From the NCBI GenBank assembly GCA_913056155.1, contig CAJXMT010000002.1, positions 1 to 54,427 of the forward strand: 54,427 nt of DNA, read 5' to 3'. The DNA is from an uncultured Cryomorphaceae bacterium. Lineage in GTDB: Bacteria > Bacteroidota > Bacteroidia > Flavobacteriales_G > Salibacteraceae. Each line of letters opens with the position of its first letter. Position 1 is the first letter of the stretch. The translations under genes were made by a program, and so were the position numbers. The notes under the pieces were generated by a model that saw only the letters and a list, made by a program, of their open reading frames with translations, ran no database searches and had not been told where the DNA came from. Of this stretch, positions 53,356 to 54,132 are shown piece after piece.

Positions 53356-53495
53356 CCACTAACGGTTTGCAGCTAAGAAACGTGGGGCTTTTCGAAGCAC
53401 TTTCCTGTCCGCCCGTGACAAAGGTAGCCACGAAGAACGAACCTGGAGTTTACCACTATCCGCCCCATGTTTTCTTAGGTGCTGTTACCTGCCGT
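53356..53495 (-). other. attC-like folded site 1 (integron-like cassette end)
   Basis: Arms CTAAGAAA-CGTGGGGC (53373-53388) and GCCCCATG-T-TTTCTTAG (53462-53478), 73-nt loop; outer boxes TAAC...GTTA; shares boxes with site 2. Confidence 0.65.
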
Positions 53496-53507
53496 ATTTT
53501 TTCTTTT

Positions 53508-53927
53508 CTATTCGAAGTCAGTTTCGCGAACACGTTTTTTGTCTCGTCTTGCGTCAACTGCTACTCGAAGTTGTTCACGTAGGTTTTTTCCGTCTTTTAT
53601 CGCTGGTATCTTAACAATGGAATGAGACCTGTCAGAAGTCGCCATGATAAGATTCGATAATCCAACAAGTCGCAAAAAGAAAGGCTGTTCAAGTCTTATG
53701 TCCTTTACTCGGTATAATTCAAGTTCGTCAGTTGTTTTTGAAAGAACTCCTTTTTCTTCTATTAATCTTTGGTCTGTAATTTCAATTTTCCAAGTTTTAA
53801 CGACTAAAAATCTCCATAGGGCAATGAAGATTGGTATTACAAGCCAACTAAAAAGGATACAAAATACATATGTCCCAAAATTTGTCCATTGTGACGGACT
53901 GCCTTTCCAAATTTCTTTTTCTTCCAT
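53508..53927 (-). CDS. bPH2-domain membrane protein (putative cassette cargo)
   Basis: Two TMs then TWKIEITDQRLIEEKGVLSKTTDELELYRVKDIRLEQPFFLRLVGLSNLIMATSDRS. Confidence 0.85.
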   Translation of the reverse strand: MEEKEIWKGSPSQWTNFGTYVFCILFSWLVIPIFIALWRFLVVKTWKIEITDQRLIEEKGVLSKTTDELELYRVKDIRLEQPFFLRLVGLSNLIMATSDRSHSIVKIPAIKDGKNLREQLRVAVDARRDKKRVRETDFE

Positions 53928-54062
53928 TGTTTTAATTTTTTCTGCCTATAAGGTTCAAATTCAGCGGTTAATTGTTGTTTTTAATTAGAAGTCTGCAAAC
54001 CTTAGTCGTAATAATGTCGACTACAAACTTCGAGTTTTTTTGTCAGTTGTCCTGTTTCATAT

Positions 54063-54132
54063 GGCAGGTAACGGTTTGGCTATGCGCAGTAGCGTCCCGC
54101 AGGGCGCTATTGCGCATAGGTGTTGTTGTGGC
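54063..54132 (-). other. attC-like folded site 2
   Basis: CTATGCGCAGTAGCG-t-CCC-gca-GGG-CGCTATTGCGCATAG (54080-54119), 18 bp with one bulge and one G-U; flanks GGCAGGTAACGG and GGTGTTGTTGTGGC. Confidence 0.7.

What the first reader, a model, noticed from the sequence alone, without database searches (positions are those of the whole stretch)
53356..54132. Two attC-like sites delimiting a gene cassette: integron-like element in a Bacteroidota chromosome
On the minus strand both sites read YAACARCACCTA-[arm]-loop-[arm]-TAGC..CAAACCG^TTA, with near-perfect folded arms (loops of 3 nt and 73 nt, like the variable terminal structure of attC). The unit between cut points (53363-54071, 709 bp) begins, after site 2's G, with TTACCTGCC, and its own site 1 carries GGCAGGTAAC, a perfect 10-bp complement (GTTACCTGCC/GGCAGGTAAC). 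In integrons the outer R'' box of attC is complementary to the start of its own cassette, because the circular cassette restores R'-R''. Gene order on the minus strand is gene-attC-gene-attC, ending just upstream of yidD. Boxes are not canonical RYYYAAC/GTTRRRY, so this may be a divergent or undescribed cassette family.
Basis: partly seen in the sequence, partly recalled or inferred. Interest (0 to 1): 0.88.

Follow-up and report, generated by a model that had tools for sequence, protein, structure and literature searches.

The report
Integron-like cassettes of Bacteroidota
The two hairpins bound a mobile-gene cassette of an integron-like gene-capture system that is widespread in Bacteroidota, whose integrase lacks the protein helix thought to have made integrons possible, so it opens the origin of integrons to direct test.

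Summary
Sites S1 (53361-53486) and S2 (54070-54127) belong to a structured DNA family present in 87 of 150 sampled Bacteroidota genomes. Its 15-bp stem shows strong covariation. S2, left out of the model, still matches at E=5.7e-9.

In related genomes these sites form arrays downstream of a tyrosine recombinase. Each cassette's start is complementary to its own end: 19 of 28 adjacent pairs are perfect, against 1.3% of mismatched pairs. The first cassette's start lies just after the integrase gene in 18 of 26 loci, against 0 of 646 controls, which defines an attI-like site, TATAAACNAG^TT. Mismatch patterns show that the bottom strand folds, as in integrons. Related loci share integrase and flank but not arrays.

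The window's genome has the integrase and attI on contig C74 and more arrayed sites on C44 and C17.

Two integron hallmarks are absent: the integrases lack the I2/patch III insertion of IntI, and the stems are nearly unbroken, with a conserved G.T wobble instead of extrahelical bases.

Verdict: a new integron variant whose integrases are close relatives of IntI. Recombination itself was not tested.

The parts
53361..53486 (-). Site S1: attC-like recombination site, 126 nt (AAC ... GTT on the minus strand), 3' end of the complete cassette and last site before yidD
   Evidence: sequence; model R1 85.8 bits (S1 was in the training set); 90% identical copy at G000:C44:715-839
54070..54127 (-). Site S2: attC-like site, short form (58 nt), 3' end of the upstream, truncated cassette
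   Evidence: model R1 46.9 bits, E=5.7e-9, not in the training set
53363..54071 (-). One complete gene cassette (709 bp) between the two inferred G^TT crossover points
   Evidence: own-arm rule: GTTACCTGCC at its start pairs with GGCAGGTAAC at its end
53484..53493 (-). R'' arm of S1 (GGCAGGTAAC)
54063..54072 (-). R' arm at the start of the cassette (GTTACCTGCC, crossover after G54072)
53508..53927 (-). Cassette gene: 139-aa protein with bacterial PH domain (bPH_2)
   Evidence: Pfam PF03703 E=8.4e-13
54132..54425 (-). Gene of the upstream cassette, 5' part lost at the contig end; no Pfam match
52829..53251 (-). yidD-like gene just beyond the last site; first non-cassette gene (array boundary)
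   Evidence: Pfam PF01809 E=6e-16

Best explanation
This is the tail of an integron-like cassette array of a type common in Bacteroidota. A tyrosine recombinase relative of IntI, with no I2/patch III insertion, recognises hairpins formed by the bottom strand of the ~124-nt (or short 47-78-nt) sites. It cuts next to the invariant G^TT. It excises single-gene cassettes as circles, in which the R'' and R' arms of one cassette meet as a full 9-10-bp stem. It inserts them at a double-stranded attI-like site (TATAAACNAG^TT) placed right after its own gene. Shown here: array anatomy, own-arm rule, attI position, bottom-strand covariation, linkage to the integrase, variable arrays. Inferred: that the enzyme does the recombination, that one strand is exchanged, that circles form, and that the conserved G.T wobble pairs mark the strand. 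In this genome the integrase and attI sit on contig C74, which ends about 250 bp into the first cassette. Array pieces lie on C44, C17, C85 and at the end of the window (C2).
For: (a) Site family: 15-bp stem, 96.4% of cells paired, covariation score 0.868 against 0.185 in shuffles and 0.095-0.174 when slid. (b) Own-cassette arms: sum of matches 205 against a maximum of 165 in 20,000 permutations; 19 of 28 pairs perfect against 1.3%. In the own genome, three cassettes have 10, 10 and 9 bp. (c) Integrase linkage: 84 sites downstream on the integrase strand in 374 kb, 5 upstream in 476 kb, 16 on the other strand, 9 in reversed DNA. (d) attI: 18 of 26 loci against 0 of 646; consensus TATATAAACAAG^TT. 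(e) Strand: A.C 164 against G.T 24 in top-strand stems, 68 sites against 1, control 77 against 74; bottom strand more stable in 68 of 84, p=7e-12. (f) Variable arrays: L102 and L191 are 81% identical for 4.6 kb through the integrase, then unrelated from about 20 bp past L102's attI. (g) 24 of 26 confirmed single cassettes carry their longest ORF on the cassette strand.
Against: No recombination product (circle, empty site or shuffled strain pair of the same species) was seen. The own-genome integrase is not physically linked to the window's array in this fragmented assembly (288 contigs). Eight of 26 loci gave no attI match, and some integrase homologues showed few or no sites in 10 kb. Assignment of each array to the nearest integrase is inference.
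Confidence: 0.88

Rival explanations
1. Ordinary attC sites or CALIN of a canonical (IntI, I2-containing) integron, merely diverged.
For: Same layout (AAC ... GTT, G^TT boundary, gene then site, bottom strand folded), a length like long attC sites, integrase related to IntI with a shared SPLD-like C-terminus (82% and 92%).
Against: No sequence over the IntI model's cut-off in the own genome (117 and 93 bits in two pieces, cut-off 265). The integrase beside the arrays lacks I2. Model R1 finds nothing convincing in 48 loci, nearly all with true intI, 528 kb, including the aadA1 attC of R100. Stems lack the bulges of attC.
Confidence: 0.06
2. A transposable hairpin element (MITE or IS200/IS605-like) that inserts next to genes, with no cassette logic.
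For: Nearly identical S1 copies with different flanks; single-strand hairpin ends are also used by IS200/IS605 elements.
Against: The arms of adjacent sites match pairwise and differ from cassette to cassette. Sites are ordered, one-directional and adjacent to an integrase. The attI prediction succeeded.
Confidence: 0.02
3. Xer/dif-type modules (pdif) moved by host XerC/XerD.
For: The enzymes are Xer-like and the genome has XerC/D-like genes (C147, C15).
Against: pdif sites are ~28-bp double-stranded sites with a fixed core (general knowledge). Here the sites are 47-127 nt, with a covarying single-strand stem and variable cassette-specific arms, and they track a different recombinase.
Confidence: 0.02
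4. Chance hairpins or transcription terminators between genes.
For: They lie after genes and fold.
Against: Covariation keeps the stem in sequence-diverse copies; hits in reversed DNA are rare; S2 matches an independent model at 5.7e-9.
Confidence: 0.01

Closest known systems
Integron (IntI integrase, attI, attC cassette arrays; class 1 of R100, superintegrons with ~124-bp VCR-type attC)
   Same: Array of mostly single-gene cassettes in one direction; GTT-bounded sites; own-cassette R''/R' complementarity; attI beside the integrase; bottom strand folds; integrase related to IntI, with Xer outside.
   Different: No I2/patch III; near-continuous stem with a conserved G.T wobble instead of extrahelical bases; 1-2 nt / 5 nt spacers; variable 9-10-bp R arms rather than GTTRRRY; integrase usually points into the array, and is divergent only in a subset lacking the N-terminal extension (L293, L294).
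Inverted integron of Treponema denticola (from memory)
   Same: Integrase gene in the same direction as the cassettes.
   Different: That integrase is a true IntI; here I2 is absent and the phylum differs.
NCBIfam NF040815 XerA-like 'site-specific tyrosine recombinase/integron integrase'
   Same: Best family for the integrase (219 bits, cut-off 220); a database name that some Bacteroidota members carry.
   Different: XerA acts on dif and has no cassette array (general knowledge); many Bacteroidota members tested here carry a ~100-residue N-terminal extension with a folded DUF5710-like domain.

Membership tests
Integron | intI gene encoding a tyrosine recombinase with the IntI-specific I2 helix / patch III | tested here: not met
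   Catalytic-motif spacing 57-63 residues (46 loci) and 57-59 (118 homologues) against 99-108 in 43 IntI; TIGR02249 match split and below cut-off
Integron | Cassettes flanked by attC-like sites with R''/R' complementarity of the same cassette | tested here: met
Integron | Primary insertion site attI next to the integrase gene | tested here: met
   Sequence prediction 18/26 against 0/646; activity untested
Integron | attC folds from the bottom strand | tested here: met
   Mismatch asymmetry 164:24 and folding energies, covariation; activity untested
Integron | Extrahelical bases (bulges) in the L arms read by I2 | tested here: not met
   44-site consensus stem has no conserved bulge but a G.U pair in 42 of 44 at one position
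Integron | R boxes RYYYAAC / GTTRRRY | tested here: inconclusive
   AAC and GTT kept; the next bases vary between cassettes
Integron | Site-specific recombination of cassettes by the integrase | not testable with these tools
   needs an assay; only indirect support from divergent arrays after conserved integrase/attI
Integron | Promoter Pc that expresses the first cassettes | not tested
   -

The most novel reading that the evidence does not exclude
Classical integrons are one I2-bearing offshoot of an older and wider family of cassette-capture systems that recombine folded single-stranded sites without I2. In Bacteroidota the strand and site are read by another solution, namely conserved G.T wobble pairs in the hairpin and, in many members, an extra DUF5710-like N-terminal domain. 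I2 would then be a later refinement and not the innovation that created integrons.
Probability: 0.5. Interest if true: 0.95.

Novelty: new variant of a known kind. Interest (0 to 1): 0.9.

Why it matters
The literature holds that integron integrases gained the ability to recombine single-stranded attC sites by acquiring the I2 helix, that I2 is found in no other protein, and that intermediates are lacking (PMC7790495). Searches with IntegronFinder found almost no integrons in Bacteroidota: only integrases without sites, plus one complete integron in Salinibacter ruber (PMC9024848). Here a phylum-wide population of cassette arrays with I2-less relatives of IntI lies outside those criteria. If active, it supplies natural comparison enzymes for a long-standing question, adds a large unannotated pool of mobile genes, and gives a model (R1) that can find them. 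I did not find it described in the papers searched, but preprints and most subscription journals were not searchable, so priority is not established.

Tried and rejected
Exact-pattern searches around CAAACCGTTA gave mostly chance hits inside genes and were replaced by structure-aware finders. The strict gap pattern found no genome in 100 relatives: S2 itself fails it by one base, and the usual ~124-nt sites exceed its gap. It still found 35 contigs in the viral collection.

Rfam has no family here. yidD synteny across the family was uninformative because yidD is weakly conserved. Contig-end overlaps linking C74, C44 and C2 were not found.

A search for canonical attC in true intI loci with my stem finder found none, because bulged attC stems fail its ungapped stem. 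The cross-recognition test therefore rests mainly on R100's aadA1 attC and on contigs whose arrays I did not verify. IntegronFinder's own model was not available.

The placement of IntI inside the Bacteroidota radiation (97/87 with all columns) is not firm. With core columns only, its sister group changes, and a tree with all Bacteroidota integrases as one clade is not rejected (p-AU 0.166). The structure model of the cassette protein was poor (pLDDT 60).

Full report
WHAT IS IN THE WINDOW. On the minus strand the last kilobase of the contig reads: end of a truncated gene, site S2, a 709-bp unit with a 139-aa bPH_2-domain gene, site S1, then yidD. The unit starts with TTACCTGCC after the G of S2, and its own site carries GGCAGGTAAC. 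The window is the whole contig C2 of a 2.76-Mb, 288-contig genome, so the array is cut off by the assembly.

THE SITES ARE A FAMILY. S1 recurs at 90% identity at C44:715-839 with different neighbours, and 14 times in a congener, in clusters spaced about 0.5-2.5 kb. A strict pattern also hit 35 contigs of a viral collection. A weight-matrix finder gave 93 sites against 2 in reversed sequence. An alignment of 44 sites (bottom strand) gave a 15-bp stem. Thirteen of its pairs have compensatory changes, 96.4% of cells are paired against 59.9% in shuffles, and the covariation score is 0.868 against 0.185. One position is a G.U pair in 42 of 44. The model R1 finds S1 (in training) and S2 (not in training, E=5.7e-9) and nothing else in the window, and nine matches in the genome, the last weak.

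CASSETTE LOGIC. If each unit moves as a circle, its own two ends must be complementary, while neighbouring units need not agree. This was tested on adjacent sites from many loci. With the first finder, 42 pairs gave 205 matches against at most 165 in 20,000 permutations. With a structure-only finder, 28 pairs within 1.5 kb gave 19 perfect 6/6 matches, against 1.3% of mismatched pairs. In the own genome the window's cassette has 10 bp. On C44 one cassette runs from the partial site at the contig start (GTTGCCACAC) to the site at 715 (GTGTGGCAAC), and the next pairs over 9 bp. Confirmed single cassettes have a median of 956 bp, and 24 of 26 carry their longest frame on the cassette strand.

THE INTEGRASE. 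Contig C74 of the same genome carries a 379-aa tyrosine recombinase. Its relatives stand beside arrays in other genomes. In 54 integrase loci, 84 sites lie downstream on the integrase strand, 5 upstream, 16 on the other strand and 9 in reversed DNA. A few lineages without the N-terminal extension have the integrase pointing away from the array, as in classical integrons (L293, L294). Many assemblies, including C74, stop soon after the integrase, as expected if arrays break assembly.

attI. The arm of the first cassette's site predicts the sequence at the insertion point. It was found within 400 bp of the integrase stop in 18 of 26 loci and never in 646 control combinations. Aligned, these points read TATATAAACAAG^TT. 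C74 has TTTATAAACGAG^TTGTGCG at position 254, about 250 bp from the contig end.

WHICH STRAND FOLDS. The finder scores A.C and G.T equally, yet top-strand stems hold 164 A.C against 24 G.T, and 68 sites lean one way against 1; control stems are 77 against 74. A.C on top is G.T on the bottom strand, so selection kept the bottom-strand hairpin. DNA folding agrees: 68 of 84 are more stable on the bottom strand, p=7e-12. This matches the strand used by classical attC sites (established knowledge).

VARIABILITY. Two loci (L102, L191) with nearly the same integrase are 81% identical for 4.6 kb up to just past the attI and share nothing in the array beyond.

WHAT IT LACKS. IntI1 and IntI4 carry an insertion between the catalytic Lys and His-x-x-Arg motifs. 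The spacing is 99-108 residues in 43 IntI, 57-63 in 46 Bacteroidota loci and 57-59 in 118 close homologues. No own-genome protein passes the integron integrase cut-off. The stem has no conserved bulge. Model R1 finds nothing convincing in 528 kb of loci around true intI genes, including R100's aadA1 cassette. Many of the integrases instead have a ~75-residue folded N-terminal domain, weakly like DUF5710.

RELATION TO IntI. With Xer proteins as outgroup, IntI and these integrases form one group. IntI is monophyletic and falls among them, but its exact place depends on the columns used, and a tree holding all Bacteroidota integrases together is not rejected (p-AU 0.166). Both share an SPLD-like C-terminus. 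Common descent with IntI is likely; whether IntI arose from within is open.

HOW COMMON. R1 matches occur in 87 of 150 sampled Bacteroidota genomes, with up to about 20 per genome where only 23 candidates each were scored. Relatives of the L102 integrase (E<=1e-50) occur in 106 of 399. A named plasmid example is Chryseobacterium sp. SNU WT5 NZ_CP041688.1, with integrase, attI and array.

LITERATURE. Integron surveys report almost none in Bacteroidota and treat I2 as the key innovation. Searches of the open-access library found no description of this system. Preprints and most subscription journals were out of reach.

VERDICT. It works like an integron on the sequence tests of cassette logic made here. 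It fails the strict definition on the integrase insertion and on the bulged attC. I file it as a new variant of the integron kind, with recombination activity still to be shown.

Noticed in passing
L279:7049-9070 (Acinetobacter indicus plasmid NZ_CP041297.1): The 'xerD' gene upstream of the resistance gene tet(X3) encodes the C-terminal part of this integrase family (47% identity). Just before tet(X3) stands GTTATGTGCCATTTTT, an arm seen at several of these sites, and after its stop a half-site AACAAGCAGTTTTGCAATAG. tet(X) may have left Bacteroidota as such a cassette, though the two arms (GTTATGTGCC / GTTAGTAGCC) do not match.
   Followed up: partly
L093:10829-12346: The first cassette after the attI-like site in the congener G002 encodes a 505-aa protein that reads like a reverse transcriptase; the integrase there is only a C-terminal fragment.
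   Followed up: no
L281:14744-16060 and L283:8708-9988: Group II intron reverse transcriptases lie inside the arrays on the opposite strand, reminiscent of group IIC-attC introns of classical integrons.
   Followed up: no
L293:3359-15772: A 51-bp site is repeated five times identically between ordinary sites, mostly preceded by GTTGAAGAAGAA: a repeated mini-cassette.
   Followed up: no
L058-L092: Arrays obeying the own-arm rule occur on contigs catalogued as viral, suggesting phage carriage or misclassified chromosomal DNA.
   Followed up: no
L155:11170-19558: Six weak R1 matches on one strand beside a ~600-aa integrase variant point to a more diverged site type.
   Followed up: no
window:51216-52884: Two neighbouring genes after yidD encode proteins with weak TPR-like matches and similar-looking C-terminal membrane parts, possibly a duplicated pair linked to yidD.
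   Followed up: no
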